DNA from: Brucella haematophila
Lineage (GTDB): Bacteria > Pseudomonadota > Alphaproteobacteria > Rhizobiales > Rhizobiaceae
Direction of reading: 5' to 3'
Assembly (NCBI RefSeq): GCF_005938105.1
Contig: NZ_VCPE01000009.1
Location: forward strand, 1-64,000
Length of the DNA stretch: 64,000 bases
Position numbers and translations under genes: made by a program. Positions 8,296 through 38,853 of the stretch are shown piece after piece. Numbering within the stretch: position 1 is the first letter of the stretch; each line of letters begins with the position of its first letter. Under the pieces are notes generated by a model. The model had not been told where the DNA came from. It did not search any database and was given only the letters and a program-made list of their open reading frames with translations.

Positions 8296-8631
8296 AAGGC
8301 TCATCCTTGTTTGTTGGTGCAAACAGGATGGGCGAATTCCGAATGATGTGGATAATATTCCTACAACCTGAGAACTATGTTTGACGGGCATGCAGGCATT
8401 CCGCGTATCATTTGCCTTGGTGAACAGGTTTACGGTTAGGGGAATTCTCTATCGAAAGCAAACACATAGGGGATAGTAGCGGGCTGGCTGTCCTGTCTCC
8501 AGAGTCTGAATAGTGAAAAGCGTTCTTTAGCAGCGCCGCTTTGGTCATCCCAAAGTCTATCCCGCAAACTTATCCTCCCTTGCAATTTCCTCATTATAAG
8601 AAGATATTCCTATTCAGATGAGGGAAGATGA

Positions 8632-24218: not shown

Positions 24219-24318
24219 GAGCGCATCCCGAAAAGTGTGAAGCTGTTTTAGGAATAGATGCGCGATAAAACAAAGGATTGGAGCGCCGATCTGATCCAAT
24301 CAGATCGCAACGCGCTCC
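24219..24318 (-). repeat. Bru-RS-like repeat overlapping the GTA small terminase start
   Basis: In minus orientation this copy runs from the palindromic end (GGAGCGCG...GGCGCTCC, 24280-24318) to the conserved CACACTTTTCGGGATGCGCTC end (24219-24238). The open frame of the first GTA gene starts inside it at 24258, so the repeat supplies the start codon and about 20 codons. Confidence 0.75.
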
Positions 24319-24854
24319 AAGCGCAGGTGCCGCAGTTGGACATCACAACAAGACAGGCGCGCAGCGAGGCGCGTATCCGGCTTGCGTATGGTTTGCAGAC
24401 GACCCACGGCATCGACACTGCCGAAATGGCCGAGGTGCTGGGTTATTCGCTGGATAATTATCTGGTGCGGTTGCGCCGGTTGCAGCTGGTCGGGGCATCC
24501 GGCGCGGCGCTCAAACCACAGGCAAATGCCGATCCGGCGCTGGAACGTTTGCAGACAGAATTGAAGCGGTTGCTCGATGCGGAAGAACTGCCGGACAAAA
24601 GCAAGGCTGAAGCCTTGATGGCGCTGGCGAGGGCCGTGAAGACAGTGGGTGAACTCTCTGCCGAAGCAGCCGTCCCGATACGTTCGGAGGAAAATTCCAC
24701 GGTCAGCGTCAACGAGGCGAGGCAGGCTTTGGTTCGAATAGACAGGAGAATTGAGGAACTTGCAAAAAGGCGCGCAAGGGAAATCCTGGGGCGCGGGCTT
24801 GACGCGAATGCAGGTGATGGCGGCGGTGGAGGAGTGGCTTCTCCGGGCGCGTGA
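24258..24854 (+). CDS. GTA small terminase-like protein (g1 position)
   Basis: The protein has 198 residues with a helix-turn-helix-like segment (about 38-75, ARIRLAYGLQTTHGIDTAEMAEVLGYS) and a C-terminal helical region with Ser/Glu-rich charge. Position and size fit the small terminase subunit g1 of RcGTA. The first about 20 residues are encoded by a Bru-RS-like repeat, which also offers AGGA just before the ATG. A start after the repeat (GTG 24327 or TTG 24336) is possible but lacks a clear ribosome binding site. It overlaps the large terminase gene by up to 104 nt. Confidence 0.6.
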   Translation: MRDKTKDWSADLIQSDRNALQAQVPQLDITTRQARSEARIRLAYGLQTTHGIDTAEMAEVLGYSLDNYLVRLRRLQLVGASGAALKPQANADPALERLQTELKRLLDAEELPDKSKAEALMALARAVKTVGELSAEAAVPIRSEENSTVSVNEARQALVRIDRRIEELAKRRAREILGRGLDANAGDGGGGGVASPGA

Positions 24855-26052
24855 CGCGCAATTACCGCCTGCCGATGACTGGCGGGTCTGGCTCATTCTT
24901 GGCGGGCGTGGTTCCGGCAAGACGCGGGCGGGCGCGGAATGGGTTTCCGGCATGGCGCTTGGCCTGCCGCCTTTTGGCCAGAAGCCATGCGGTCATATCG
25001 CGCTGGTTGGTGAAACATTCAACGATGCGCGGGAGGTTATGGTCGATGGGCCATCGGGGATTTTGTCGGTGTCGCGGCTCAGCCGCCCGCGCTACGAGGC
25101 GACACGCCGCCGCCTGATCTGGGACAATGGCGCGACGGCGACGCTGTTCTCTTCGGAAGATCCGGACAGCTTGCGCGGGCCGCAATTTGCCGCCGCATGG
25201 TGTGACGAGCTGGCGAAATGGAAGCATCCGCAGGAAACCTGGGACATGCTGCAATTCGGCCTGCGTCTGGGGACGTCGCCACGGCAGGTAGTCACGACGA
25301 CACCGCGCGCGGTGCCTCTGCTGAAAACGCTGATGGCGGATGACGGTGTTTCGATGACGCATATGCGCACCGATGAAAACGCCGCCAATCTGGCCGATGG
25401 TTTCATCGCGACCATCAACCGTCGCTATGCGGGCACGCGCCTTGGGCGACAGGAACTTGACGGCGAACTGATCGAGGAGCGCCCCGGTGCGCTGTGGTCA
25501 CGCGATCTGATCGAGCGCGGTTTCGAGGAACGCGCACCGCCAATGGTCCGCATTGTTGTCGCGGTCGATCCACCGGCCTCGTCGGGCAAGGCGTCCGATG
25601 CATGCGGCATTGTCGCGGCAGGTATCGATGCGGAGGGGATCGGCCATGTGCTCGTCGATGACAGCATGTCCATGGCCAAACCGCATCAATGGGCACGCAA
25701 GGCCATCGCGCTTTATCACCGTCTGGAGGCCGACACGATTGTCGCCGAGGTTAATCAGGGCGGCGAGATGGTGGCTGCGGTGCTGGCGGCGGAAGATCCT
25801 TCCGTGCCGGTGCTGAAGCGCCACGCAACACGGGGCAAATGGTTGCGGGCCGAACCTGTCGCAGCCCTGTACGAGCAGGGGCGGGTGCGGCATGCCGGTC
25901 GGTTTCAGGCGCTGGAAGACGAGATGTGCGATTTCGCGCCGGAAGGGCTTTCCAGTGGTCGGTCGCCCGATCGTCTCGACGCGATGGTCTGGGCCTTGGG
26001 CGAGTTGATGCTGGGCACGGATTTGAAGCCCCGCATCCGGCGGTTTGGCTAA
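24751..26052 (+). CDS. GTA large terminase (TerL, g2)
   Basis: The DNA-packaging motor subunit, 433 residues. It has a Walker A motif GGRGSGKT (51-58), a Walker B-like AAAWCDELAKW with Asp152-Glu153, the coupling motif VVTTTPRA and a C-terminal RNaseH-like nuclease domain beginning with VAVDPPASSG. The start is uncertain. The TTG at 24751 follows AGGAG closely; ATG 24808 is an alternative with no site. Together with the portal and protease genes it heads a headful-packaging module of the HK97/RcGTA type. Confidence 0.9.
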   Translation: MRNLQKGAQGKSWGAGLTRMQVMAAVEEWLLRARDAQLPPADDWRVWLILGGRGSGKTRAGAEWVSGMALGLPPFGQKPCGHIALVGETFNDAREVMVDGPSGILSVSRLSRPRYEATRRRLIWDNGATATLFSSEDPDSLRGPQFAAAWCDELAKWKHPQETWDMLQFGLRLGTSPRQVVTTTPRAVPLLKTLMADDGVSMTHMRTDENAANLADGFIATINRRYAGTRLGRQELDGELIEERPGALWSRDLIERGFEERAPPMVRIVVAVDPPASSGKASDACGIVAAGIDAEGIGHVLVDDSMSMAKPHQWARKAIALYHRLEADTIVAEVNQGGEMVAAVLAAEDPSVPVLKRHATRGKWLRAEPVAALYEQGRVRHAGRFQALEDEMCDFAPEGLSSGRSPDRLDAMVWALGELMLGTDLKPRIRRFG

Positions 26053-26080
26053 ATTTTAGAAAAATTGGAGAGGCCGCTTT

Positions 26081-27289
26081 ATGGCTTGGAACTGGGCTTG
26101 GAAAAGGCCGGGGCGCGAAACTGCGTCGCGACTGCCTGCACCCGTGAACACGGGACGCGAGCGGAAAATGGCAAACGGTTTTGTCGCGCTGCATGTTGAG
26201 CGCAATGCGTCGTGGATTGCGCGGGATTACAGTACGCTGGCGCGCGAGGGCTTCATGCGCAATCCGGTCGCGCATCGCTGTGTGCGCCTGATTGCCGATG
26301 CGGCCAGCAGCGTTCCATGGCTGCTTTATGAAGGCGTCATGGAGCATGACACGCATCCGCTTTTGGAGCTGATCGCATCACCGCAGTCGGGCATGGACGG
26401 GGCAAGCTTTCTGGAAAGGCTCTATGGCCATTTGCTGATTTCCGGCAATGCCTATGTGGAGCGGGTTGATCTGCCGAGCGGGCGGATGGAACTGCATCTG
26501 CTGAAACCGGAGCGGGTCAGCGTCGAAACGGATGCCAATGGCTGGCCGCAGGCGCTGGTCTATCGTTCCGGCTCGACGATACGGCGCATTGCGCTTGGAG
26601 CTGAAACGGCTGCGGGCTTGCACCTGAAACTTTTTCATCCGCTCGATGATATCTATGGTTTCGCGCCGCTTGAGGCCGCTTTGATGGCGCTCGATACGCA
26701 TAATGCTGCGGGCGCATGGAACAAGGCCTTGCTCGACAATTCGGCGCGCCCGTCCGGCGCGCTGGTTTATGCGCCGAAGGACGGCGGCAATCTGACCGAG
26801 GAACAGTTCGAACGGCTGAAGGCCGAACTGGAAGAGGGCTATACAGGCGCGTCGGGCGCCGGGCGTCCGCTGCTTCTGGAAGGCGGGCTCGACTGGAAGG
26901 CGATGGGCTACAGCCCGCAGGATATGGACTTCATCGAAGCCAAGAATGGCGCTGCCCGCGACATTGCGCTGGCTTTCGGTGTGCCGCCCATGCTGCTCGG
27001 CATTCCCGGCGACAATACCTATGCCAATTATGCCGAGGCCAACCGGGCGTTCTACCGGCTGACCGTGCTGCCTTTGATGGGGCGCATGGCCAAGGCGTTC
27101 AGCCATTGGCTGGGACCACTTTTCGGAGAGAATTTACGCCTCGACTACGATGCCGACCGCATTGAAGGGCTTTCCGCCGAGCGTGAAGCGCTGTGGCGGC
27201 GCGTGTCCGACGCGCCTTTTCTCAACGACGACGAGAAGCGCGAAGCCGTCGGCTATCAGCCTCAAACAAAAAGCAGGAGGTCGTTATGA
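26081..27289 (+). CDS. GTA portal protein (HK97 family, g3)
   Basis: This 402-residue phage portal protein has the family hallmarks: an N-terminal RNPVAHRCVRLIADAASSVPW segment, the central HPLDDIYGFAPLEAA, then ALLDNSARPSGAL and the FGVPPMLLGIPGDNTYANYAEA motif. It would form the dodecameric ring through which DNA enters the head. The stop overlaps the next start (ATGA). RcGTA g3 is of similar size and position. Confidence 0.92.
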   Translation: MAWNWAWKRPGRETASRLPAPVNTGRERKMANGFVALHVERNASWIARDYSTLAREGFMRNPVAHRCVRLIADAASSVPWLLYEGVMEHDTHPLLELIASPQSGMDGASFLERLYGHLLISGNAYVERVDLPSGRMELHLLKPERVSVETDANGWPQALVYRSGSTIRRIALGAETAAGLHLKLFHPLDDIYGFAPLEAALMALDTHNAAGAWNKALLDNSARPSGALVYAPKDGGNLTEEQFERLKAELEEGYTGASGAGRPLLLEGGLDWKAMGYSPQDMDFIEAKNGAARDIALAFGVPPMLLGIPGDNTYANYAEANRAFYRLTVLPLMGRMAKAFSHWLGPLFGENLRLDYDADRIEGLSAEREALWRRVSDAPFLNDDEKREAVGYQPQTKSRRSL

Positions 27290-27663
27290 GCAATCTGAAC
27301 GACACGGTTTTTGCATCCGACGCCGCGTGGTTGTGGTTCGCCAAGGTGGCGGGTGCTGTTGCAGGTTCGGCGGTGTCGCTTGCCTATATGCTGCCGCATG
27401 GCAGGCGCGAGGCGGCGGTCCGCTTCGCTGTCGGCATTATCTGCGGCATGGTTTTTGGCGGTGCGGCGGGCGTCAAGATTGCGGAAGCGCTGGCGCTCGA
27501 CGCCGCACTCGGGCGGGCTGAACTGATGCTGATGGGGTCGGCATCAGCCAGCCTTGCGGCATGGTCGGCGCTGGGCGTGTTCAAGCGTTTCAGCGAAAGG
27601 CTCAAACATGCCGCCCTGCCGGGCATTCTTCCTGCCGAAAGGAGCACCGATGGCGAAGCCTGA
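27286..27663 (+). CDS. DUF6107-like small membrane protein in GTA cluster
   Basis: The 125-residue protein has three hydrophobic segments (about 15-35, 45-72, 80-100). GCAGGAGG precedes the ATG and the start overlaps the portal stop. RcGTA-like clusters often have a small open frame between portal and protease (g3.5). I believe rhizobial members are called DUF6107. Its role in particles, if any, is unknown; a membrane protein is unexpected in a mature capsid. Confidence 0.7.
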   Translation: MSNLNDTVFASDAAWLWFAKVAGAVAGSAVSLAYMLPHGRREAAVRFAVGIICGMVFGGAAGVKIAEALALDAALGRAELMLMGSASASLAAWSALGVFKRFSERLKHAALPGILPAERSTDGEA

Positions 27664-28321
27664 TCTGAAGCTTGAAACCAAGCGTGCTTCGCTGGCGCTG
27701 GAAGATGTCGAGATCGACGGCAGCTTTTCCGGCTATGCCAGCATTTTCGGACTGGCTGATCTGGGCAGCGACGTGATTGAGCGCGGCGCTTTCAGCCGTG
27801 CTCTGCGCGAACGCGGCACCTCGGGCATTCGCATGTTGTGGCAGCATGATGCGGCGGAGCCAATCGGTGTCTGGACGCAGATACGGGAAGACGCGCGTGG
27901 GCTCTATGTCGAAGGCAGGCTTGCCAAGGGCGTGGCGCGGGCCCGCGAGGCACTCGATCTGCTGCGCTCCGGCGGGATTGACGGACTGTCCATCGGCTTT
28001 CGCACGGTGAAGGCGCGCAAGGATGCGCGCACCGGTTTACGCCATATTCTGGAAGCCGATCTCTGGGAAATCTCGGTGGTAACCTTTCCGATGTTGCCGC
28101 AGGCGCGCATCGGTCAGGTCAAATCGGATTTGCCCAGCATCAGGGAATTCGAACGCTGGCTCACGCGGGATGCGGGGCTGAGCCGTGCGAGCGCACGAAC
28201 CGTCATAGCCAAGGGCTATGCGGCGCTCGGCGACAACCGGATAGGGCGGGACGCCATCCGGCATGAGGAAGCCGGTCTTGCGCAGCGTATGCGCGATGCC
28301 GCCAAAACAATCTCCAATTAA
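27650..28321 (+). CDS. GTA prohead protease (HK97 family, g4)
   Basis: A serine protease of 223 residues that would mature the procapsid by trimming the major capsid protein. The herpesvirus/HK97 protease fold is recognised from SGYASIFGLADLGSDVIERGAF, the MLWQHD segment with catalytic His, and GLSIGF with catalytic Ser. ATG 27650 follows AAAGGAG and overlaps the upstream gene by 14 nt. The C-terminal part carries a helical extension. Confidence 0.9.
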   Translation: MAKPDLKLETKRASLALEDVEIDGSFSGYASIFGLADLGSDVIERGAFSRALRERGTSGIRMLWQHDAAEPIGVWTQIREDARGLYVEGRLAKGVARAREALDLLRSGGIDGLSIGFRTVKARKDARTGLRHILEADLWEISVVTFPMLPQARIGQVKSDLPSIREFERWLTRDAGLSRASARTVIAKGYAALGDNRIGRDAIRHEEAGLAQRMRDAAKTISN

Positions 28322-28332
28322 ACAGGAACTCC

Positions 28333-29607
28333 ATGGAAAATAACCATAGCATCCCGCTTGAAACCAAGAGCGTGGAAACGAAGTCGCTTGTCTCGAACCC
28401 GCTTCAGAATGGCGATGTCGGCGAGGCTTTCGAAGAATTCATGACGGCGTTTTCGGCCTTCCGCGATGCCAATGACGAGCGGCTCAAGAAGGTTGAGAAA
28501 CATGCGGGCGTGGACGTGCTTCTGACCGAAAAGGTCGAGCGCATCAATCGTGCGCTCGATGAGCAGAAGCACGCACTCGACAGTTACGTGTCGCGGCAGT
28601 CGCGTCCGCAACTGGGCGGGGCTTCTGTTGTTGGCAATGTCGAACACAAGCAGGCCTTTGACGGTTATGTGCGTCGCGGTGACGAGCAGACGTTGCGCGG
28701 CATCGAGCAGAAGGCGCATTCCTATGCTTCGGGTCCGGATGGCGGCTATCTGGTGCCTGCCGAGCTTGAAACCGAAATCGGTCGCAGGCTGGCCGTACTG
28801 TCGCCGATCCGCGGCATTTCCGGCGTGCGTCAGGTCTCCGGCGCTATTCTGAAAAAGCCGTTCTCTATCACCGGTCCGGCAACGGGTTGGGTTGGCGAAA
28901 CGGACGCCCGTCCGCAGACCGCATCGGCTAAACTCGCCGAATTGCAGTTCCCGACCATGGAAATCTACGCCATGCCGGCGGCAACGGGTGCACTCCTCGA
29001 CGATGCGGCGATCAATGTCGAACAGTGGATTGCCGAGGAGGTGGAAACCGCCTTCGCCGAGCAGGAAGGCGCCGCCTTCGTCAATGGCGACGGGGTCAAC
29101 AAGCCACGCGGCTTCCTGAACTACGACAGTGTGGCGGAAAGCGCCTGGGAGTGGGGCAAGCTTGGCCATATTGCCACCGGCGTTGATGGTGCTCTTCCGG
29201 CGACCGATCCTTCGGACAAGCTGATAGAGCTGATTTATGCGCTGAAGGCGGGCTATCGTCAGAACGCCAATTTCGTCATGAACCGCAAGACGCAGAGCGT
29301 GTTGCGCAAGCTGAAGGACAAGGACGGCAACTATCTCTGGCAGCCGCCATCCGCCATTGGCGACAAGGCATCGCTGATGGGCTTCGGACTGGTCGAGGCC
29401 GAGCATATGCCGGACATTGCAGCCGATGTTCCGGCTATCGCATTTGGCGATTTTGGACGCGGCTATCTGGTTGTCGACCGAATCGGTGCGCGCGTGTTGC
29501 GCGATCCATATTCCGCAAAACCCTATGTCCTGTTCTACACCACCAAGCGAGTCGGCGGTGGTGTCCAGGATTTCGACGCGATCAAGCTGCTGACATTCGC
29601 AGCTTAA
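28333..29607 (+). CDS. GTA major capsid protein (HK97 fold, g5)
   Basis: This 424-residue protein has a charged, helical N-terminal scaffold region (about 1-110) that the prohead protease would remove. An HK97-fold domain follows, with GGYLVPAELETEI, TASAKLAELQFPTMEIYAMPAAT and the C-terminal FGDFGRGYLVVDRIG. AGGA lies 6 nt before the ATG. A hairpin at 29649-29675 follows, which separates this abundant structural product from the connector genes. Confidence 0.93.
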   Translation: MENNHSIPLETKSVETKSLVSNPLQNGDVGEAFEEFMTAFSAFRDANDERLKKVEKHAGVDVLLTEKVERINRALDEQKHALDSYVSRQSRPQLGGASVVGNVEHKQAFDGYVRRGDEQTLRGIEQKAHSYASGPDGGYLVPAELETEIGRRLAVLSPIRGISGVRQVSGAILKKPFSITGPATGWVGETDARPQTASAKLAELQFPTMEIYAMPAATGALLDDAAINVEQWIAEEVETAFAEQEGAAFVNGDGVNKPRGFLNYDSVAESAWEWGKLGHIATGVDGALPATDPSDKLIELIYALKAGYRQNANFVMNRKTQSVLRKLKDKDGNYLWQPPSAIGDKASLMGFGLVEAEHMPDIAADVPAIAFGDFGRGYLVVDRIGARVLRDPYSAKPYVLFYTTKRVGGGVQDFDAIKLLTFAA

Positions 29608-29648
29608 GTCTTAGACCGGCTGGTATTTTTTGCAGGTCTTTTGAAGCC

Positions 29649-29675
29649 CCACTGCCGGTTTTGGCAGGTGGTTTT
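29649..29675 (+). terminator. Hairpin with T run after the GTA capsid gene
   Basis: CCACTGCC (29649-29656) pairs with GGCAGGTGG (29663-29671) with one bulged base, followed by TTTT. It lies in the only sizeable non-repeat gap (29608-29754) inside the cluster. It could partially terminate transcription after the capsid gene. Confidence 0.45.
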
Positions 29676-29754
29676 GCGCTCGCGAGAGGTGAAACTTGTA
29701 GAGGGCGTTATGTGTAACTGACTGATTTGAAAGTTATCGTTTAGGGGAAATTCC

Positions 29755-30321
29755 ATGACAATGTTTCTTGTCACGCCGCCGGCAGTCGAGCCGGTGACGA
29801 TCGAAGACGCACGCACATTTTTGCGTATCTCGACACAAAGCGAAGACACCATTCTGGAGCGGCTGATCAAGACGGCGCGGGAATTGGTGGAAGCTGAAAC
29901 CGGCCTCGCGCTGATTGACCAGATGTGGCGGCTGCGCGTGGATCGCTGGCCCCGCTCGGGCCGTCTGGCCCTGTTCAAGTATCCGGTTTCAGCCGTGACT
30001 GAAGTGGTCGCCTATCGTGCCGATGGCACGGCGATCAGCTTTGCGCCGGAGGAGTTCGAGCTGCAGCTTGGGCGTCGTCCGCAGCGCCTCTACATGGCGC
30101 CTTATCCTGACGCCCCAACCTTCAATGGTATCGAGGTGGATTTCGTGGCGGGCTTCGGCGCTACCGCCGATCTGGTGCCCGAGATGCTGAAGCAGGCCAT
30201 ATTGAGCCTCGTCGCCCATCTCTATGAATCGCGCGCAGGCGTCGATGCTGGTTCTGCGGCGGTGTCTTTTCCGCCGATGGTCAACCAGATGGTCGATGGC
30301 TGGCGACGGATTTCTCTATGA
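29755..30321 (+). CDS. GTA head-tail connector (gp6-like)
   Basis: The 188-residue protein has the N-terminal pattern of phage gp6 connectors (VTIEDARTFLRISTQSEDTILERLIKTARE.VEAETG), a helical adaptor that stacks below the portal. GGGGA precedes the ATG. Its stop overlaps the next start by 4 nt. It corresponds to RcGTA g6. Confidence 0.88.
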   Translation: MTMFLVTPPAVEPVTIEDARTFLRISTQSEDTILERLIKTARELVEAETGLALIDQMWRLRVDRWPRSGRLALFKYPVSAVTEVVAYRADGTAISFAPEEFELQLGRRPQRLYMAPYPDAPTFNGIEVDFVAGFGATADLVPEMLKQAILSLVAHLYESRAGVDAGSAAVSFPPMVNQMVDGWRRISL

Positions 30322-30656
30322 ACAATGTGCTCTTCATCGATCCGGGCCAGCTCACTGCCGAGCTGGCTCTGGAAATGTTGCAGCCGGTGGCCGACGGGAT
30401 GGGCGGTTATGCTGAAACATGGGTGGAAATCGCGACGGTCTGGGGACGGATTGAACCCGTTTCCGTGGCGCAGCGCGATTTCGGCACACGACCGCAGCCA
30501 CAGGTGACGCACCGCATCCTGCTGCGGTTTCGCGACGATATTTCAACCGCCATGCGGCTGCGCAAGGGTGCACGTCTGTTCCGGCTCAGTGCGGTGCACG
30601 ATCCGGACGAGACCGGGCGCTATCTCGTCTGCCTGGCGGTCGAGGAGGGACGATGA
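30318..30656 (+). CDS. GTA head closure/head-tail adaptor (g7)
   Basis: A 112-residue beta-rich protein of the SPP1 gp16 / HK97 gp7 head-closure type, shown by the ETWVEIATVWGRIEPVSVAQRDFG segment and the THRILLRFRDDISTAMRLRKG core. It is coupled by ATGA overlaps to both neighbours. It would seal the head and link it to the tail. Confidence 0.85.
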   Translation: MNNVLFIDPGQLTAELALEMLQPVADGMGGYAETWVEIATVWGRIEPVSVAQRDFGTRPQPQVTHRILLRFRDDISTAMRLRKGARLFRLSAVHDPDETGRYLVCLAVEEGR

Positions 30657-30859
30657 ATATTGCCATGAAACTGACGGCAGACGGTCTGGTGCGGGCGCTG
30701 CGCTGGAAGGCTTTGGCGGTCAGCGATGATCTGATTTTTGACAGACAGGCGCAAGCGCGCAGCGCTGGCGCGGAGACGATCTCAAATACCGGAACGGTAA
30801 CTTCCAGCGGGGGCCCGGATGGAACTTGGAGCGGCAGCATTACAGAGGGCGCTCTTTGA
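30653..30859 (+). CDS. Small hypothetical protein in GTA cluster
   Basis: A 68-residue protein starts by ATGA overlap with the head-closure gene and overlaps the next gene by 41 nt in another frame. The N-terminal half is helical and basic (LTADGLVRALRWKALAVSDDL), the C-terminal half Gly/Ser/Thr-rich. HK97-like phages often encode an HK97 gp10-like tail protein here; this is much shorter. It may be a remnant or a small GTA-specific gene. Confidence 0.5.
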   Translation: MNIAMKLTADGLVRALRWKALAVSDDLIFDRQAQARSAGAETISNTGTVTSSGGPDGTWSGSITEGAL

Positions 30860-31250
30860 CGCCCTGAAAGATGACGACGGATTGAAAGAAACACTCGGCG
30901 GCGAGCGGATCTATGATCATGTGCCACCGAAAACACCCTTTCCCTATGTCACGCTTGGCGAGACATCCAGCCGCGACTGGAGCACCGCCAGCGAAAAGGG
31001 CGACGAGCATTTCGTCAACATACAGATATGGGCGAAGGAAAGCGGGCGTAAGCGCGTTCTGGACATCGCTGCCAGGATCGCAAGCCGCCTCGACGAGGGA
31101 CCGCCGGTTACGGTGGACGGGCATCATCTCGTCAATCTCATGCTGACCGAAGTGATCGCTCGTAACACGGACGGTCTTGGCAGCTATCTCGGTACGATGC
31201 GCTATCGCGCGGTGACCGAGCCTTTGATTATAGAGCGCGTTTCGATCTGA
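30819..31250 (+). CDS. GTA tail terminator/DUF3168 protein (g8)
   Basis: The 143-residue protein matches the DUF3168 family of tail-completion proteins: an N-terminal helix LQRALFDALKDDDGL, then VPPKTPFPYVTLGE, then VNIQIWAKESG. It corresponds to RcGTA g8. The last five codons (ERVSI) and the TGA stop lie in a Bru-RS-like repeat, so the insertion has replaced the original C-terminus or the gene has adapted to it. Confidence 0.85.
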   Translation: MELGAAALQRALFDALKDDDGLKETLGGERIYDHVPPKTPFPYVTLGETSSRDWSTASEKGDEHFVNIQIWAKESGRKRVLDIAARIASRLDEGPPVTVDGHHLVNLMLTEVIARNTDGLGSYLGTMRYRAVTEPLIIERVSI

Positions 31251-31332
31251 TTTTATCAGATCGGCGCTCTATCCATCTGTTTTAACGCACATCTTTTCCG
31301 AAAACCGTTTCACACTTTTCGGGATGTGCTCT
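31232..31332 (+). repeat. Bru-RS-like repeat between GTA g8 and g9
   Basis: A full-length copy of about 101 bp has the palindromic left end (31232-31270) and the conserved CACACTTTTCGGGATGTGCTCT right end. It gives the stop codon of g8 and ends just before the ribosome binding site of g9 (AGGAG at about 31339). As RNA it would fold into a long hairpin in the middle of the structural operon. Confidence 0.8.
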
Positions 31333-31348
31333 CATCCAGGAGAAATGA

Positions 31349-31762: not shown

Positions 31763-32106
31763 TGGCCAACCGCCATCGCGGCGAAGTCGCCGCAAAGCTC
31801 AATGGTCGTGACTGGATTCTCTGTCTCACTTTGGGCGCGCTTGCCGAGCTGGAAACAGCTTTCGAAGCGGATAATCTTTCCGAATTGATCGCGCGGTTTT
31901 CGACAGGGCGGCTGTCGGCCCGCGATATGTTGCGTATTCTTTGCGCGGGCCTGCGTGGTGGTGGCCATGTCGTAAGCGAGGAAGATGTCGCTGATATGCG
32001 CGCCGAAGGCGGTGCAGCCGGTTTCGCTAGCGTCGTCGCGTCGCTTTTGACCGCCACTTTTGGCACATCTGAAAAGCTGGAAAGCGATTCTTCGTCAAAC
32101 CCTTGA
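31759..32106 (+). CDS. GTA tail protein, g10 (tail assembly chaperone-like)
   Basis: The 115-residue protein matches the alphaproteobacterial GTA family, found in the same place as RcGTA g10: RHRGEVAAKLNGRDWILCLTLGALAELETAF, then LSARDMLRILCAGLRGGG. It is probably a tail assembly chaperone. Its stop overlaps the next start (TTGA). Confidence 0.85.
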   Translation: MMANRHRGEVAAKLNGRDWILCLTLGALAELETAFEADNLSELIARFSTGRLSARDMLRILCAGLRGGGHVVSEEDVADMRAEGGAAGFASVVASLLTATFGTSEKLESDSSSNP

Positions 32107-32318
32107 GAGCCGCAGTTGAATCGGAATCTTCGCCAAAACCTTTTCCATGGGATGAGGTCATGCGGGCGGGTTTCGGTTTGCTGCGGCTTTCCTCACAGGC
32201 TTTCTGGTCCATGACCCCGCGTGAACTGGCGGCAGCTCTCGGACCCATTGCGCCACAACGCGATGCGCCCACGCGCCATGCGCTTGATGCGCTGATGCGC
32301 ACTTTCCCGGACGGGTAA
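32103..32318 (+). CDS. Small GTA tail assembly chaperone (g10.1, rcc01693-like)
   Basis: A 71-residue protein with the pattern FPWDEVMRAGFGLLRLSSQAFWSMTPRELAAAL, typical of the small open frame after g10 in RcGTA-like clusters. The start is TTG, overlapping the g10 stop. By analogy with phage G/GT pairs, the two small proteins may chaperone the tape measure. Confidence 0.82.
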   Translation: MRAAVESESSPKPFPWDEVMRAGFGLLRLSSQAFWSMTPRELAAALGPIAPQRDAPTRHALDALMRTFPDG

Positions 32319-32335
32319 TCTCAACAGGTAATCTC

Positions 32336-32881
32336 ATGACTGACGAAACCGTAACCGTATCTGTCGATGCGGATACAAGCGCGTTCGACCGCGCCTTGAC
32401 TGATCTTGAAAAGCGCTCGTCGAGCTTTGGCCGAAGCCTGACTTCGGCGCTGAAAGGAGCGATCACCTCCGGCCAGGGGCTGGAGGATGTGTTGCGCAGC
32501 CTCGCGGGCAGTCTGGCCGGTTCGGCCTTGTCGGCAGGTTTGCAGCCGCTGCAAAGCCTCGCCTCATCGGCAATTGGCGGGCTGACGAGCGGCATCAGTT
32601 CGATCATGCCTTTTGCCAAGGGCGGGGTCGTGTCCAGCCCGACCTATTTCGGCATGGGGTCCGGCTCGCTTGGCCTGACGGGTGAAGCCGGTGCGGAAGC
32701 GATCCTGCCGCTGGCACGGGGGGCTGATGGCCGCCTTGGCGTGGCCACGGGCGGCGGCGGCAGTCCGGTGCAGGTCGTGTTCAACATGACATCGCCGGAT
32801 GCATCGTCGTTCAGGAAATCCGAAGCGCAGGTTTCGACCATGCTGGCGGGTGCGGTGCGTCGTGGCGCAAGGAGATTGTGA
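32336..32881 (+). CDS. GTA tape measure protein (g11), very short
   Basis: The 181-residue protein begins with VTVSVDADTSAFDRALTDLEKR and has a helical Ala/Ser/Gly-rich centre with a hydrophobic stretch. The C-terminal part carries the tape-measure motif FAKGGVVSSPTYFGMGS...GEAGAEAILPLARG. Tape measure length sets tail length, so this size predicts a short tail, as in RcGTA. AAGGAG for the next gene lies in its 3' end. Confidence 0.85.
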   Translation: MTDETVTVSVDADTSAFDRALTDLEKRSSSFGRSLTSALKGAITSGQGLEDVLRSLAGSLAGSALSAGLQPLQSLASSAIGGLTSGISSIMPFAKGGVVSSPTYFGMGSGSLGLTGEAGAEAILPLARGADGRLGVATGGGGSPVQVVFNMTSPDASSFRKSEAQVSTMLAGAVRRGARRL

Positions 32882-32883
32882 GT

Positions 32884-33516
32884 ATGACGGACGCCTTCCA
32901 TGATGTGCGCTTTCCGCTCGGCGTTTCCTTCGGGGCAACGGGCGGGCCGGAATGGCGCAACGAGATTGTCGCGCTCACCTCGGGTCTGGAAAAGCGCAAT
33001 GCGCGCTGGGCGCATTCACGCCGCCATTTCGATGTCGGCACGGGTCTGCGTTCGCTGGACGATCTGAAAACCGTGCTCGCCTTTTTCGAGGCGCGGCGCG
33101 GGTCGCTTTATGCTTTCCGGTTCCGCGATCCTTTAGACTATTCGTCAGCGCCGGGCAATATTCCGCCGACCTATCTCGATCAGAAATTGGGCGTCGGCGA
33201 CGGCGCGACGACGGGCTTCCAGCTGATCAAAAGCTACGAGACCTATGACCGGCCTGTGACGCGCCCAGTCGCCGGTTCGGTGACGGTCGGGGTCAATGGC
33301 GTGCATATGCAGGAAGGCGAGGCCTTCACGGTCGATCTTGCAACGGGGCAGATCACATTTTCACCGAGCTATGTGCCGGGTGTCAGTGCGGTGGTGACGG
33401 CTGGCTTTCTGTTTGATGTGGCCGTGCGCTTCGACACCGACCGCCTGACAGCCAGCATAGCTTCGTTTCGCGCTGGCGAAATCCCGTCCATTCCGATCAT
33501 CGAGGTGAAGTCATGA
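32884..33516 (+). CDS. GTA distal tail/baseplate protein, DUF2460 (g12)
   Basis: This 210-residue DUF2460 protein has FHDVRFPLGVSFGATGGPEWRNEIV at the N-terminus, the RRHFDVGTGLRSLDDL and FRFRDPLDYSS segments, and a beta-rich C-terminus. I prefer ATG 32884, 9 nt after AGGAG; GTG 32878 overlapping the previous stop is an alternative. RcGTA g12 is the distal tail protein that caps the tube and carries the baseplate. Confidence 0.88.
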   Translation: MTDAFHDVRFPLGVSFGATGGPEWRNEIVALTSGLEKRNARWAHSRRHFDVGTGLRSLDDLKTVLAFFEARRGSLYAFRFRDPLDYSSAPGNIPPTYLDQKLGVGDGATTGFQLIKSYETYDRPVTRPVAGSVTVGVNGVHMQEGEAFTVDLATGQITFSPSYVPGVSAVVTAGFLFDVAVRFDTDRLTASIASFRAGEIPSIPIIEVKS

Positions 33517-34388
33517 TCCCGGTTCCGGCAGCGCTTGAATCACATTTGCAGGGCGAGGTGACAACCCATTGCTTCGCCTGGATTATCCGCCGTCAGGACG
33601 GCTTGGTTCAGGGTTTCACCGATCATGACCGCACGCTCTCGATCAATGGCGTTGCCTGTGAACCGCAGACCGGAATGAACAGTTCCGAAGCCTCGACCAC
33701 GCTCGGCCTTTCCATCGCAGGCGGTGAGGTTGAAGGCGCGCTGTCATCCGCCAAAATCAGTGACGCGGATATTGAAAACGGACGCTATGACGGGGCGGCC
33801 ATAGAGGTCTATCTGGTGAACTGGTCAGCGCCCGATCAGTTCATGCTGTTGCGCCGCTGGACGGCAGCAAAGATCAGCCGTTCGGGCACAAGCTTCGTCA
33901 TGGAGCTGAAAGGCGTTGCCGCCCTGTTCGACGCGGTGCGCGGCAGGCGGATCATGCGCCTTTGCGATGCAAGTCTGGGGGATGGGCGCTGCGGGGTGAA
34001 CCTTGACGACCCGCTTTATTTTGCGGGCGGCGTTGTCGTCACGGCGGGCAGCACGGAACTGACGGCGACGGAACTTACCGCCTTTGCATCGGGCTGGTTT
34101 GCGAACGGTTATCTCACCTGGACAAGCGGTAGCAATGTCGGCGCGAAAATACGTGTGCTGGATCACAGCGGCACCACATTGCGCCTCAGCGAACCGCCGG
34201 TTTCGCCTATTGCGGCAGGCGACAATTTTCGCGTGGTCGCGGGTTGCGACAAGAGCTTTGCCACCTGCAAGGCAAAGTTTGCCAATGGTGTCAATTTTCG
34301 TGGCTTCCCGCATCTGCCGGGCAATGATGCCGCTTACACTTATGTCAGCGGTGATCAGGAATATGACGGGAGCGCGTTGGTCCAATGA
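33513..34388 (+). CDS. GTA baseplate hub protein, DUF2163 (g13)
   Basis: The 291-residue protein has an N-terminal FAWIIRRQDGLVQGFTDHDR region and a C-terminal phage BR0599-type domain (NFRGFPHLPGND). Four cysteines, C151, C160, C245 and C252, are set as C-x8-C and C-x6-C. As I recall, the RcGTA hub binds an Fe-S cluster and these would be its ligands. ATGA-type overlaps couple it to both neighbours. Confidence 0.87.
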   Translation: MIPVPAALESHLQGEVTTHCFAWIIRRQDGLVQGFTDHDRTLSINGVACEPQTGMNSSEASTTLGLSIAGGEVEGALSSAKISDADIENGRYDGAAIEVYLVNWSAPDQFMLLRRWTAAKISRSGTSFVMELKGVAALFDAVRGRRIMRLCDASLGDGRCGVNLDDPLYFAGGVVVTAGSTELTATELTAFASGWFANGYLTWTSGSNVGAKIRVLDHSGTTLRLSEPPVSPIAAGDNFRVVAGCDKSFATCKAKFANGVNFRGFPHLPGNDAAYTYVSGDQEYDGSALVQ

Positions 34389-34819
34389 CGATGGCCGAAC
34401 GGATTCTCATCGAGGCCGAACGCTGGCTCGGCACACCCTACCGACACGGTGCATCGACGCTTGGCGTGAGCTGCGACTGTCTTGGTCTGGTGCGCGGCAT
34501 CTGGCGGGCGCTGTATGGCCGCGAGCCGGAAGATGCTGGCGCCTATGCGCCCGACTGGGGCGAGGTGACAGCCACAGACCGGCTGCTCGACGCCGCGTCC
34601 CGGCACATGGCCCGGCGCGAGACCGGTGAGCCGCTGCCGGGCGACCTGATCGTCTTCCGCTGGCGGGTCGATGTGGCGGCGAAACATCTTGGCATTATGA
34701 GCCGCGAGAACCGCTTCATCCATGCCTATGAGGGGCATGGCGTTCTGGCCTCAGCGCTGGTGCCGCAATGGCGCAGGCGCGTGGCTGGCATTTTCATTTT
34801 CCCCGAAAGGACAGACTGA
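34385..34819 (+). CDS. GTA NlpC/P60 cell-wall peptidase (g14)
   Basis: This 144-residue peptidase would sit in the tail tip and cut peptidoglycan cross-bridges during DNA delivery. The NlpC/P60 nucleophile is Cys32 in SCDCLGLVRG, and the likely catalytic His101 is in AAKHLGIMS. The N-terminus RWLGTPYRHGAS is typical. It overlaps g13 and is 3 nt from the tail-tip gene. Confidence 0.9.
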   Translation: MTMAERILIEAERWLGTPYRHGASTLGVSCDCLGLVRGIWRALYGREPEDAGAYAPDWGEVTATDRLLDAASRHMARRETGEPLPGDLIVFRWRVDVAAKHLGIMSRENRFIHAYEGHGVLASALVPQWRRRVAGIFIFPERTD

Positions 34820-34822
34820 CCC

Positions 34823-37800
34823 ATGGCGACAATCGTTCTGCAAGCCGCAGGTGCTGCCATCGGCGGCATATTCGGCCCGGTTGGCGCGGCGCTTGGCGCG
34901 GGCCTTGGTGCCATGGCCGGCTATAGCATCGACACGGCGCTGATCAATTCCACCCGCCACAGCGAAGGCGCAAGACTTTCCAGCGGTCGTGTCGTGACAG
35001 CAGAAGAAGGTGCCAGCCTGCCTTTCATCTACGGCACGGCGCGCGTTTCCGGCACGTTGATCTGGGCGACCCGTTTCGAGGAAAGTGCTACCACGGAACG
35101 GCAGGGCGGCAAGGGCGGGGCGAAGGTTACGAGTTACAGCTATTTCGGCAATGCCGCTTATGCGGTGGCCGAAGGTGAGATCGCGTTCATTCGTCGGGTC
35201 TGGGCCGATGGACAGGAACTTGATCTCACCGAAATTGAAATGCGTGTCTATCGCGGTGATGCAACGCAGCAGCCCGATCCGCTGATCGAGGCCAAGCAGG
35301 GCACCGGCAATGCGCCTGCCTATCGCGGTACGGCCTATGTGGTGTTCGAGCGCATCCCGCTCGACACTTATGGCAACCGGCTGCCGCAATTCGAGTTCGA
35401 AGTGGTGCGCCCGGTCGGCAAGGTCGCGCGAGACCTGCGTGCGGTGGCGCTCATTCCCGGTTCGACGGAATTCGGACTGATGCCCGATCCTGTTACCGAC
35501 GAACCGACACCGGGAACCACGCGATCATTGAACCGCAATGCGGTGCGCGCCCGCAGCGACTGGACAGCGGCGCTTGATGAATTGCAGGCGCTTTGTCCCG
35601 GCCTGCGCCATGTCGCAATTGTGGTGCCATGGTTTGGCGACGATCTCAGGGCGGGCTTCTGCCATATTCGACCCGGCGTGACTGAACTTTCGGTGCGCAA
35701 GCCGAGCCACGTCTGGAAGGTGGAAAATGTTGCGCGATCAGCCGCGCATCTGATCTCTACTAATGGCAGCGGCTCGGCCTATGGTGGCACGCCATCCGAC
35801 GAAAGCGTCGTCGCGGCGATTCTCGATGCCAAGGCACGGGGCCTAAGCGTGACGCTCTATCCGTTCATCATGATGGATGTTCCGGCAGGCAATACGCTGC
35901 CTTCGCCCTATGACGGGGTCGGGCAGCCGGTCTATCCGTGGCGCGGACGCATAACCTGTCACCCCGCAATCGGTTTCGTCGGTACACCGGACAAGACGCC
36001 AGAGGCGGCAAATCAGGTGACAGCGTTCGTCGAAGGCGAATGGGGTTATCGACGGTTCCTGCGTCATTGTGCTGATCTGGCGATGCAGGCGGGCGGTGTC
36101 GATACATTCCTGATCGGTTCGGAATTGCGCGGCCTCACCAGCATTCGTGACGGGCGGACAAGCTTTCCATTCGTGACGAGCCTTTGTTCGCTTGCGGCAG
36201 AAATGCGTGAGCTTCTGGGCAGCGCCTGCCACATCACCTATGGCGCGGACTGGACGGAATATTTCGGCTATCAGGCGCAGGACGGGACCGGCGATCTGTT
36301 CTTCAATCTCGATCCGCTCTGGTCGCACCCGGCCATCAACGCCATTGGCATCGATAATTACATGCCGCTTGCCGATTGGCGCGATGGCGATCTCGACGGT
36401 GGCAATCCGGACGGTTTCGACGGGCCGTATGATTTCGCCGGGCTGACCAGCCAAATCGAGGCTGGCGAGGGCTATGACTGGTATTATGCCAGCTACAGCA
36501 ATCGCAGTGCGCGACAGCGCACGCCGATCACCGATGGGCTGGCAGGAAAGCCCTGGGTCTATCGCTACAAGGATATTCGCGCCTGGTGGAGCAATCCGCA
36601 TTTCAACCGAATTGACGGGGTTGAAGCGACAAGCCCGACCGGCTGGATACCGCAGTCGAAGCCGATCTGGTTTACGGAGCTTGGGTGTCCGGCGGTGGAC
36701 AAGGGGCCGAACCAGCCGAATGTCTTTCCAGATCCGAAGTCGTCGGAAAATGCCACGCCCTATTTCTCGAATGGATCACGCTCCGATGCCGCCATGGAGC
36801 GGTTTCTGCGCGCCCATTACCAACACTGGCCAACGGCCAATGCTGTGTCGCCCGTCTATGGCGGACCGATGCTGGATATGGACCGCATCTATCTCTGGGC
36901 GTGGGACACGCGACCTTTTCCGGAATTCCCGCTCGCCAGCAGTACCTGGGGCGATACCGCCAACTGGCGTCTCGGCCATTGGCTGAACGGGCGTCTGAGC
37001 GGTGTCGCGCTGGACGAGTTGATTGCGGCGATTCTTACCGATTTCGGTCTGCCGCAGGCCGATTGTTCTAGCGCGCATGGCTATCTCGCTGGTTTCACCA
37101 TTTCGGAATCATCGACAGCACGGGGTGTGCTGGAGCCGCTTCTGAACGTCTTCGGCGTGCATGGCTTCGAGCAGGCGGGTCAGTTCGTGTTCAGGAGCAT
37201 AGCGCGGGCATCGTCAGCCATTTCGATCAACGACATGCTGGTACAGCCCGATGAAGGCGAAGCGTTTACGGCCGAACTGGAAGACCTTGGCACATTGCCC
37301 GCGACGGTGGAGTTTTACTGTAGCGATCCGCTGCGGGACTTTCAGGTGGTCGGTGCGGCGGTGCGTCGGGACGAGGGGCAAGGCAGCGAGAGCATCAGCC
37401 TGTCAGGAGCAATGGAGCAGGGGCAAGCGGCGGCACTGGCTGAAACCTGGATGGCGCGCCGCTATGCCGAACGGCGAACAGCGTCCTTCTCACTGCCATG
37501 GTCGGCGGCGTCGCTTCATGTTGGAGACCGGCTGCGCGTCGATATGCTGGGCGGCGGGCGTGACTATGTCATAACCGGCCTTGATGACGGTTCGGTTCGC
37601 ACAGTCAAAACGACGGCGCTTGCCCCGAATATCGTCTTTGCGGATCGGGGCGAGACGCCGCAGGCAGTGCCCGGCGGACCGGCCATCGACATGAAACCGG
37701 CTTTTCATCTCGTCGACCTGCCGCTCTGGCCGGGGGCGGAAGAACCCGCAGGGCAGTTTCGCATTGCAGCCCATGCCAAGCCATGGCGCGGTGTGGCGGT

Positions 37801-38629
37801 CTATGCCTCACCGACCGACGAGGGTTTTGCCGAGCGGGCGAGGATTACGGAACGGGCAGTGATGGGCGAACTTGCCGAGCCGCTTGCCGGTGGTCCAAGC
37901 GGGCGTTTACAGGAGGGGCACTCCGTCGAGGTCACGCTCTATGCCGGTGAACTGCAATCGCGTCCGCTGGCCCAGATTCTGAACGGGGCCAATACCGGGC
38001 TGTTGCAGGCGTCCAATGGCGACTGGGAAATATTCCAGTTTCTCGATGCGGAGGAAGTCGGCACCAATCGCTGGCGTTTGTCACGACTGTTGCGCGGGCA
38101 ACTTGGCACGGAAGCAGCGGCGCTTGTCGACAAGCCGGTTGAAACGCCATTCATCTTGCTGGATTTGGCGGTGAGCGGGGTGGGCCTCTCGGCATCCGAG
38201 CTGGGGCTTCAACTCAACTGGCGCGTCGGAACTACGGGTAAAACCTTCTCCGATGCCTATTTCGACACGGTTCAACAGAGCGGCGGTCTGCGTGGGCTGA
38301 CGCCGTTGAGCCCGGTTCATCTGAAAGTTGACCGTGCGGCCAATGGCGATCTCGCTTTTATCTGGACCCGGCGCGGGCGGATCGACGCTGACAGCTGGCT
38401 GGGTGAAGACATTCCGCTGGGCGAGGAGCGCGAGCTTTATACGGTCGAGGTCTGGCAAAATGGTGCTGTCGTACGGCGCGAACAGGCCACTTCGCCCTCG
38501 TGGACTTATGCCAAAGCGATTCGCACCGCTGACGTGGGTGTCGGTGCGTTTGATCTGCGCGTTGCGATGGTCAGTACGAAAATCGGTGCGGGTGATATGG
38601 CTGTACTCAATCTGGCGGCTGGCCTATAA
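34823..38629 (+). CDS. GTA tail-tip megatron protein (g15)
   Basis: At 1268 residues this is the largest gene in the window. It starts with a hydrophobic Ala/Gly-rich helix (about 3-32) and contains a GTA TIM-barrel-like domain (about 250-700, with CHITYGADWTEYFGYQ and NAIGIDNYMPLADW). A phage-tail domain follows (about 780-1000, QPDEGEAFTAELEDLGTLPATVEFYC), then a fibronectin-like C-terminus. RcGTA g15 forms the tail-tip spike. The hydrophobic N-terminus could enter the recipient membrane. Confidence 0.92.
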   Translation: MATIVLQAAGAAIGGIFGPVGAALGAGLGAMAGYSIDTALINSTRHSEGARLSSGRVVTAEEGASLPFIYGTARVSGTLIWATRFEESATTERQGGKGGAKVTSYSYFGNAAYAVAEGEIAFIRRVWADGQELDLTEIEMRVYRGDATQQPDPLIEAKQGTGNAPAYRGTAYVVFERIPLDTYGNRLPQFEFEVVRPVGKVARDLRAVALIPGSTEFGLMPDPVTDEPTPGTTRSLNRNAVRARSDWTAALDELQALCPGLRHVAIVVPWFGDDLRAGFCHIRPGVTELSVRKPSHVWKVENVARSAAHLISTNGSGSAYGGTPSDESVVAAILDAKARGLSVTLYPFIMMDVPAGNTLPSPYDGVGQPVYPWRGRITCHPAIGFVGTPDKTPEAANQVTAFVEGEWGYRRFLRHCADLAMQAGGVDTFLIGSELRGLTSIRDGRTSFPFVTSLCSLAAEMRELLGSACHITYGADWTEYFGYQAQDGTGDLFFNLDPLWSHPAINAIGIDNYMPLADWRDGDLDGGNPDGFDGPYDFAGLTSQIEAGEGYDWYYASYSNRSARQRTPITDGLAGKPWVYRYKDIRAWWSNPHFNRIDGVEATSPTGWIPQSKPIWFTELGCPAVDKGPNQPNVFPDPKSSENATPYFSNGSRSDAAMERFLRAHYQHWPTANAVSPVYGGPMLDMDRIYLWAWDTRPFPEFPLASSTWGDTANWRLGHWLNGRLSGVALDELIAAILTDFGLPQADCSSAHGYLAGFTISESSTARGVLEPLLNVFGVHGFEQAGQFVFRSIARASSAISINDMLVQPDEGEAFTAELEDLGTLPATVEFYCSDPLRDFQVVGAAVRRDEGQGSESISLSGAMEQGQAAALAETWMARRYAERRTASFSLPWSAASLHVGDRLRVDMLGGGRDYVITGLDDGSVRTVKTTALAPNIVFADRGETPQAVPGGPAIDMKPAFHLVDLPLWPGAEEPAGQFRIAAHAKPWRGVAVYASPTDEGFAERARITERAVMGELAEPLAGGPSGRLQEGHSVEVTLYAGELQSRPLAQILNGANTGLLQASNGDWEIFQFLDAEEVGTNRWRLSRLLRGQLGTEAAALVDKPVETPFILLDLAVSGVGLSASELGLQLNWRVGTTGKTFSDAYFDTVQQSGGLRGLTPLSPVHLKVDRAANGDLAFIWTRRGRIDADSWLGEDIPLGEERELYTVEVWQNGAVVRREQATSPSWTYAKAIRTADVGVGAFDLRVAMVSTKIGAGDMAVLNLAAGL

Positions 38630-38646
38630 TTTCCTGGAGAAACGAC

Positions 38647-38853
38647 ATGACAGACGACAAAGCCTGGTATCTTTCCCGCACCGTTTGGGCGGGGCTAGCC
38701 TCGATTATTCTAGGGCTGGCGGGGGCTTTCGGGGTCGCAGACAGCGCTATCGATCAAGTTGCGCTAACGGATGTTTTACTGCAACTAGCCGCTGCAATTG
38801 CTGGAATTGTTACGATATTCGGTCGCATCAGGGCAACTTCGCGCATTTCATAA
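38647..38853 (+). CDS. Holin-like small membrane protein after the GTA cluster
   Basis: A 68-residue protein with the N-terminal pattern KAWYLSRTVWAGLASIILGLAG. It has two hydrophobic segments (about 13-30 and 43-60) and a basic C-terminus. This layout recalls small phage holins of rhizobial prophages that follow tail genes. GGAG lies 9 nt before the ATG. It begins 17 nt after the tail-tip gene, so it is likely part of the same transcript. No endolysin gene is next to it. Confidence 0.6.
   Translation: MTDDKAWYLSRTVWAGLASIILGLAGAFGVADSAIDQVALTDVLLQLAAAIAGIVTIFGRIRATSRIS

What the first reader, a model, noticed from the sequence alone, without database searches (positions are those of the whole stretch)
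24258..38853. Complete RcGTA-like gene transfer agent cluster in a Brucella-type genome
About 14.6 kb hold the RcGTA gene order from small terminase to tail-tip protein, all on one strand with mostly 4-nt overlaps and intact frames. There is no integrase, repressor, replication or lysis-control gene, and the DNA composition looks like that of the host. Known: RcGTA-type clusters are inherited vertically in alphaproteobacteria. Inference: selection keeps this cluster, so it may still make DNA-carrying particles.
Basis: partly seen in the sequence, partly recalled or inferred. Interest (0 to 1): 0.75.

Follow-up and report, generated by a model that had tools for sequence, protein, structure and literature searches.

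The report
Intact RcGTA-type gene transfer agent cluster
This bacterial chromosome carries an intact, ordinary member of a known family of phage-like DNA-carrying particle genes with its switch nearby; in related species that lost the particle genes, the switch and one small membrane-protein gene often remain and appear to be under selection, which is unexplained.

Summary
Window 24258-38629 is a full RcGTA-type head-tail cluster, all frames open, between a penicillin-binding protein and a two-component system. It is inherited with its neighbour (Mantel r 0.97, 59 of 81 loci) and under strong purifying selection (dN/dS 0.07 over 4678 codons against the nearest intact relative). Such clusters are known in this order, Brucella included.

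Corrections: 7 of 17 junctions are 4-nt overlaps; a 68-aa holin-like ORF follows g15, and g3.5 (DUF6107) is a weakly holin-like membrane protein; the GafA-type activator, split as gafY-gafZ, lies in this window at 8632-9875.

Found here: a conserved promoter block upstream of g1 (68 of 73 loci) whose operator-like repeat resembles one upstream of gafY and the Caulobacter RogA site. The cluster is also repeatedly lost in the genus: 9 of 34 same-genus genomes are convincingly reduced, including three of the four closest sisters. In all nine the promoter and gafY remain, and in seven g3.5 is full length; lone g3.5 evolves under purifying selection.

So the particle is maintained in this lineage but not across the genus. 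Particle production is untested.

The parts
8349..8363 (-). distal operator-like site upstream of gafY (TAGGAA-W4/5-TCC), approximate coordinates
   Evidence: in 13 of 21 upstream regions examined, namely the window and the 12 same-genus regions; none of the 8 from other genera
8597..8612 (+). proximal operator-like palindrome TAAGAA-N4-TTCCTA upstream of gafY
   Evidence: the only match of TARGAA-N4-TTCCTA in the 5.5 Mb genome (the reversed control pattern has 3); RGAA-N4-TTCCTA in 20 of 21 gafY upstream regions
8632..9084 (+). gafY: DnaA-C-like DNA-binding protein, corresponds to the N-terminal half of GafA
   Evidence: PF08299 49.5 bits; adjacent to DUF6456; mucR upstream as described for Hyphomicrobiales (PMC9638019 section 10)
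9081..9875 (+). gafZ: DUF6456 protein, corresponds to the C-terminal half of GafA
   Evidence: PF20057 160.8 bits; of 14 control genomes the family rings only in Caulobacter
24065..24121 (+). conserved GTA promoter block: operator-like GGA-N6-TC, -35 TTGAC (24081-24085), palindrome-like spacer, -10 TAGTCA (24104-24109); a further operator-like copy lies just upstream (about 24046-24060, seen by eye)
   Evidence: PWM over 26 bits in 68 of 73 loci, 33 of them training rows; background maximum -15.7 apart from one motif copy in L072
24258..24854 (+). g1, presumed small terminase
   Evidence: position and conservation only
24808..26052 (+). g2 large terminase (start codon uncertain)
   Evidence: PF03237, PF17289
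26081..27289 (+). g3 portal
   Evidence: PF04860, TIGR01537
27286..27663 (+). g3.5, DUF6107, small membrane protein with three predicted helices, weakly holin-like
   Evidence: PF19602; 22 of 45 homologues hit PHROG holin family 198 at E <= 0.1 (best 8e-6), the window's own copy does not; AlphaFold2 model, mean pLDDT 77
27650..28321 (+). g4 prohead protease
   Evidence: PF04586, TIGR01543
28333..29607 (+). g5 major capsid protein
   Evidence: PF05065, TIGR01554
29755..30321 (+). g6 head-tail connector
   Evidence: TIGR02215
30318..30656 (+). g7 head completion/stopper
   Evidence: PF05521
30819..31250 (+). g8 tail terminator
   Evidence: PF11367
31349..31762 (+). g9 tail tube
   Evidence: PF06199
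31759..32106 (+). g10 GTA-gp10 tail protein
   Evidence: PF11836
32103..32318 (+). g10.1 tail assembly chaperone
   Evidence: PF09550
32336..32881 (+). g11 tape measure
   Evidence: NF058675 140 bits, below the cut-off of 220
32878..33516 (+). g12 distal tail protein, DUF2460
   Evidence: PF09343
33513..34388 (+). g13 baseplate hub
   Evidence: PF09931, PF09356
34385..34819 (+). g14 NlpC/P60 peptidase
   Evidence: TIGR02219
34823..38629 (+). g15 megatron
   Evidence: NF048004 1647.6 bits; PF13547, PF13550, PF23666
38647..38853 (+). 68-aa holin-like ORF at the 3' end of the cluster
   Evidence: phrog_34682 holin, E 3.5e-5; 32 of 34 homologues at E <= 0.01, best 1.3e-12; open homologous frames extracted from 58 of 82 loci searched; no Pfam hit

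Best explanation
A vertically inherited, probably still functional RcGTA-like (alphaproteobacterial type I) gene transfer agent. Stress or stationary phase would relieve an XRE/RogA-type repressor sitting on operators at both gafYZ and the cluster promoter; GafY with the main sigma factor, and GafZ as anti-terminator, would then drive one transcript from 24.1 kb through g15 and the 68-aa ORF. The products would make a small siphovirus-like particle that packages host DNA by TerS/TerL; the holin-like proteins, perhaps with an endolysin encoded elsewhere, would help lyse the producer. Shown: gene content, open frames, location, vertical inheritance, purifying selection, presence of gafYZ, conserved promoter and operator-like sequences. 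Inferred: repressor identity, GafY/GafZ action (from Caulobacter), holin function, particle production. In sister lineages the particle genes have repeatedly been lost while gafY, the promoter and usually g3.5 stayed, so g3.5 under this promoter may have a use of its own.
For: Profiles in RcGTA order. dN/dS 0.07 (dN 0.028, dS 0.41, 4678 codons) against L004; per gene 0.01-0.12, TerS 0.17. Mantel r 0.966 between distances in five cluster genes and in the flanking PBP, 59 of 81 loci, 0 of 2000 permutations as high. gafY/gafZ in the window; gafY matched in 34 of 34 other same-genus genomes, in two pieces in the suspect assembly G006. DUF6456 and megatron co-occur: 98 both, 4 megatron only, 8 DUF6456 only, 10 neither of 120, Fisher 2.9e-7, not corrected for phylogeny and counting remnants and weak megatron matches such as G009 as present; on one contig in 67 of 98, within 70 kb in 65 of those 67 (coordinates typed). 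Promoter block in 68 of 73 loci. Operator-like site upstream of gafY: only match of its pattern in the genome, related form in 20 of 21 upstream regions; Caulobacter RogA site GGAA-N4-TTCC (PMC9632790, passages).
Against: No particle, transcript or packaging data. 9 of 34 same-genus genomes are convincingly reduced, including three of the four closest sisters. TerS has no profile hit and the tape measure scores below its cut-off. In this genus the GH108 endolysin does not track the cluster: it is missing in seven genomes with intact clusters (G002, G004, G019, G025, G029, G032, G034) and kept in those that lost it. gafYZ also survives where the cluster is lost, so gafYZ does not prove GTA production. 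RogA could not be identified: L121 is only a candidate. Head-spike and tail-fibre genes were not sought. The window's own promoter operator is degenerate (GTCATTG where most loci have GTCCTTG). The holin reading of g3.5 is weak.
Confidence: 0.8

Rival explanations
1. A domesticated cluster already on its way out: still intact here by chance, but no longer making particles, as in its sister species.
For: G016 keeps only pieces of g3.5, the end of g15 and a broken 68-aa ORF; G024 and G030 hold larger remnants; 9 of 34 same-genus genomes reduced. Hub and tail-tip genes evolve faster than head genes.
Against: dN/dS 0.07 with every gene intact at dS 0.41 to L004; the decaying sister L046 (the same contig as G024 by length) shows higher ratios in the pieces that remain (0.13 overall over 1314 codons, g4 0.21, capsid 0.09; but g3.5 0.03).
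Confidence: 0.15
2. An ordinary prophage that happens to resemble a GTA.
For: Three records of the phage collection match the DNA: MW091529 (81% of the query at 76.5%), MW462191 (8%) and MT836403 (1%).
Against: No flanking direct repeats or tRNA; flanks are host genes by profile; same flanks in most relatives and a vertical signal; MW091529 and MW462191 contain the whole cluster together with PBP, response regulator and kinase, so they look like misfiled chromosome.
Confidence: 0.03
3. Tailocin-like or other non-DNA use of the particle.
For: None specific.
Against: Complete head, terminase and portal genes, under purifying selection.
Confidence: 0.02

Closest known systems
RcGTA (Rhodobacter capsulatus, alphaproteobacterial type I GTA)
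   Same: Gene order g1-g15 (order recalled; names from the profiles), megatron with GTA TIM barrel, GTA gp10, tape measure family, GafA-type activator.
   Different: gafA is split in two and lies about 14 kb upstream of g1; the g3.5 slot holds a three-helix membrane protein (DUF6107), whereas a head-locus gene of unknown function in RcGTA, Rcc01685, is described as a 75-residue helix (PMC7296036, passages; that Rcc01685 is g3.5 is recalled); a 68-aa holin-like ORF follows g15.
CcGTA of Caulobacter crescentus
   Same: Split gafY/gafZ; RogA site GGAA-N4-TTCC resembles the operators here; the palindrome-like spacer between -35 and -10 sits where the putative GafZ element lies in Caulobacter (PMC11150451, passages and section 13).
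   Different: Operator-like sites here also sit at the cluster promoter itself, while in Caulobacter RogA was enriched only at gafYZ and CCNA_02002 (PMC9632790, passages). No terminator comparable to terGTA is conserved before g1.
Hyphomicrobiales RcGTA-like clusters, with Brucella suis 1330 as the reference organism for the order in PMC9836097 (passages)
   Same: Same family; split gafA preceded by a DnaA-like gene and a mucR already described for the order (PMC9638019 section 10).
   Different: I saw no description of the shared promoter/operator or of promoter plus g3.5 surviving loss in the search listings or in the passages read.

Membership tests
RcGTA-like (type I) gene transfer agent | Homologues of the RcGTA head-tail genes in conserved order | tested here: met
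   g1 by position only
RcGTA-like (type I) gene transfer agent | Vertical inheritance at a fixed chromosomal site | tested here: met
   PBP found in 65 of 74 loci with TerL and the response regulator in 53 of 73 loci with megatron (many loci end early)
RcGTA-like (type I) gene transfer agent | No integrase or att sites beside the cluster | tested here: met
   for the flanking genes scanned (19-24 kb and 39-44 kb)
RcGTA-like (type I) gene transfer agent | GafA or GafYZ activator in the genome | tested here: met
RcGTA-like (type I) gene transfer agent | Purifying selection on the genes | tested here: met
   one intact pair with usable dS over the whole cluster; the others approach saturation
RcGTA-like (type I) gene transfer agent | Particles that carry random host DNA | not testable with these tools
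   no experiment
RcGTA-like (type I) gene transfer agent | Dispersed genes: head spikes, tail spike/fibres, CtrA control | not tested
   no query sequences on hand
RcGTA-like (type I) gene transfer agent | Holin/endolysin release genes | tested here: inconclusive
   one clear and one weak holin-like gene; GH108 endolysin elsewhere but not tied to the cluster in this genus
RogA regulon | RogA orthologue that binds the operator | tested here: inconclusive
   operator-like sites found; five S24 matches in the genome, L121 only a candidate

The most novel reading that the evidence does not exclude
GafYZ, the GTA promoter and g3.5 form a unit that outlives the particle: in lineages that deleted the capsid, tail and terminase genes, selection keeps the activator, the promoter and one small membrane protein. 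The GTA switch would then control a particle-independent trait, for example programmed lysis that releases DNA or nutrients, or protection of the cell from incoming particles or phage.
Probability: 0.33. Interest if true: 0.75.

Novelty: new member of a known kind. Interest (0 to 1): 0.45.

Why it matters
GTAs are usually argued to persist because particle-mediated transfer pays. A genus in which the particle is repeatedly lost, while its activator, promoter and one small membrane-protein gene tend to stay under selection, would let one ask what part of a GTA is really being selected. The conserved promoter and operator-like sites give a sequence handle for predicting GTA regulation across the order.

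Tried and rejected
Terminator before g1 as a GafZ target: a hairpin with a T-run at about 24183-24214 looked like the Caulobacter terGTA arrangement, but it is not conserved; the script found comparably placed strong hairpins in only a few other loci, such as L010 and L028/L029. Dropped.

Co-loss of gafYZ with the cluster: the expected result was loss together. Across the order presence is associated, but within the genus all 34 genomes keep a DUF6456 match and gafY, including those without the cluster; gafZ is in two frames in G001 and shortened in G006, both poor assemblies. This counts against gafYZ being dedicated to particle production.

GH108 endolysin as dedicated GTA endolysin in this genus: not supported, although in G072, G076, G077, G087, G089, G095, G096, G103, G109 and G116 it lies within about 2 kb downstream of megatron sequence (coordinates compared by eye).

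RogA orthologue: five S24 matches found, none could be assigned.

g3.5 in G016: at first noted as truncated; one search shows it in two diverged pieces (57% and 49% identity) at the ends of two contigs, so it is broken there.

Dropped rows: G006 was left out of the decay counts because its flanking kinase and regulator genes are also in many pieces. G001 shows similar frame problems but was kept, because its remnant DNA between promoter and g3.5 aligns with that of G009 and G017. Of 81 loci, 73 could be examined for the promoter (no TerL hit, or odd spacing, in the rest); its 33 training rows are included in the 68 of 73, so 35 of 40 untrained rows score. The exact spacer palindrome (CCGT..ACGG) fits only 23 of 68 sites, and another expression for it in the same script returned 0.

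Fold search for g3.5: never ran, the machine was busy at each try.
Full report
What is there. The window (contig C55 of a 5.5 Mb, 55-contig genome) carries at 24258-38629 a head-tail cluster whose genes match RcGTA genes in order. The strongest identifications are the megatron (NF048004, 1648 bits, cut-off 800), the major capsid protein (TIGR01554), the connector (TIGR02215) and the GTA-gp10 protein (PF11836). The tape measure hits the RcGTA tape model below its cut-off. The first gene, presumed TerS, has no significant profile hit; it is placed by position and by conservation in relatives. Seven of 17 junctions are 4-nt overlaps (from the coordinates and the start codons chosen), so 'mostly' overstates it.

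Surroundings. Upstream, on the other strand, lie a class A penicillin-binding protein and DUF1214/DUF1254/DUF2336 genes; downstream a response regulator, a histidine kinase and cytochrome c biogenesis genes. There is no tRNA in the window and no long direct repeat around the cluster. Of 80 relatives fetched, the PBP is found in 65 of 74 loci with TerL and the regulator in 53 of 73 loci with megatron; many loci end before reaching them. Over 59 of 81 loci with all genes long enough, distances in five cluster genes follow those in the PBP (Mantel r 0.966, 0 of 2000 permutations). Three phage records match the DNA; the two that hold the cluster also hold PBP, regulator and kinase and look like misfiled chromosome.

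Selection. Against L004 the cluster has dN 0.028, dS 0.41, ratio 0.07 over 4678 codons; single genes range 0.01-0.12, TerS 0.17, and the PBP 0.02. In the other relatives with intact clusters dS is about 1 or more over the cluster, so those ratios are only supportive. In the decayed sister L046 the remaining pieces give 0.13 over 1314 codons. NG86 counting was used.

Regulator. A search for the DnaA C-terminal domain found DnaA itself, a 150-aa gene in this window at 8632-9084, and one sub-threshold hit. The 150-aa gene overlaps by 4 nt a 264-aa DUF6456 gene; a MucR gene lies upstream. This is the split gafA arrangement already described for the order (PMC9638019, section 10). Among 120 genomes, DUF6456 and megatron go together (98 both, 4 and 8 with one only, 10 neither; Fisher 2.9e-7, not corrected for relatedness; remnants and weak matches count as present). 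Of 98 with both, 67 have them on one contig, and 65 of these within 70 kb; the other 31 have them on different contigs, some in assemblies of few contigs.

Promoter. Upstream of g1 a block is conserved: a GGA-N6-TCC-like inverted repeat, TTGAC, a palindrome-like spacer, TAG and a short tail. A weight matrix trained on 33 loci scores above 26 bits in 68 of 73 loci (35 of 40 untrained). In 146 scans of the remaining sequence the best score is -15.7, apart from one copy at 39.9 in L072. TTGAC is in 66 of 68, the repeat (GGA-N6-TC) in 67 of 68. Upstream of gafY a related palindrome, RGAA-N4-TTCCTA, is in 20 of 21 regions (20 fetched plus the window); TARGAA-N4-TTCCTA occurs once in this genome, there, while the reversed control pattern occurs three times. 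The Caulobacter repressor RogA binds a gafYZ promoter with two GGAA-N4-TTCC repeats (PMC9632790, passages). I infer a RogA-type repressor acting on both promoters here; its gene is not identified.

Lysis genes. The 68-aa ORF after g15 has open homologues in 58 of 82 loci searched, and 32 of 34 homologues hit a PHROG holin family. g3.5 (DUF6107) matches were listed only in the window's own family (58 of 120 genomes); 41 of 45 homologues hit a PHROG family of unknown function and 22 of 45 a holin family (best 8e-6, E limit 0.1), but the window's own copy does not hit the holin family. An AlphaFold2 model has three long helices (mean pLDDT 77.4; the other four models 61-71). A GH108 endolysin is at C45 but does not follow the cluster within the genus (27 of 34 have it).

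Loss in the genus. Among 34 other same-genus genomes, 21 have full-length stop-free megatron and full-length capsid, 3 are uncertain and 10 reduced; G006 is set aside as a poor assembly. In the nine others no full-length TerL, capsid or megatron was found, nor g7, g10 or g10.1, which are somewhat smaller than g3.5; g6 is full length in G023 and TerS nearly so in G030. g3.5 is full length in seven (G001, G009, G010, G012, G017, G023, G024), in two diverged pieces at contig ends in G016, and deleted in G030. The 68-aa ORF is full length in four (G012, G023, G024, G030). In G001, G009, G010 and G017 g3.5 is the only full-length cluster gene found. The promoter block is retained in all nine, and gafY is matched over its length in all nine. 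G001, G009 and G017 share alignable remnant DNA, so one ancestral loss is likely; G010 looks different.

Selection after loss. Lone g3.5 has dN/dS 0.24-0.26 between G001 and G009 or G017 (P of neutrality 9e-5 and 3e-5) and 0.26 between G009 and G017 (P 0.006); a different alignment gives 0.29-0.34. These pairs share branches and are not independent. In five cluster-bearing pairs g3.5 is at 0.01-0.12, so constraint is weaker after loss but not gone. gafY is at 0.20 and 0.18 between G001 and G009 or G017; between G009 and G017 gafY and gafZ have too few changes to tell (P 0.36 and 0.44). gafZ of G001 is broken, and only 99 residues could be compared. gafY and gafZ between G009 and G010 are at 0.07 and 0.14, but those two may not share one loss. 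Independence of the loss events was not tested on a species tree, and G001 is a low-quality assembly.

Verdict. The finding is a true, intact member of a known kind. Two readings remain open: a particle-independent function of g3.5 and gafYZ, or losses too recent for these to decay. The dN/dS values favour the first for the G001/G009/G017 group but rest on a gene of about 125 codons; G016 and G030 show that g3.5 can be lost.

Literature seen: passages of PMC6363796, PMC9632790, PMC9836097, PMC6821227, PMC7363004, PMC9765227, PMC13236601, PMC7296036, PMC10883770 and PMC9662315; passages and section 13 of PMC11150451; passages and section 10 of PMC9638019; other papers only as search listings.

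Noticed in passing
G000:C1:117811-120743 (L002) and G000:C36:1322-4431 (L003, L123): Other phage portal, capsid-like and S24 repressor genes elsewhere in the same genome: likely one or two ordinary prophages.
   Followed up: no
L148 (MW091529) and L149 (MW462191): Two records filed as bacteriophage are chromosomal stretches with a GTA cluster and host flanks; in MW091529 the flanking regulator and kinase are labelled antibiotic efflux proteins.
   Followed up: yes
L028: A genome record titled Bacillus subtilis SK6B4 carries a locus like that of Pseudochrobactrum: probably mislabelled or contaminated.
   Followed up: no
G072, G076, G077, G087, G089, G095, G096, G103, G109, G116: In these genomes of other families of the order a GH108 endolysin lies within about 2 kb downstream of megatron sequence.
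   Followed up: partly
G060: Three megatron copies in one genome.
   Followed up: no
L072:7315-7371: A second copy of the GTA promoter motif outside the interval scanned upstream of TerL.
   Followed up: no
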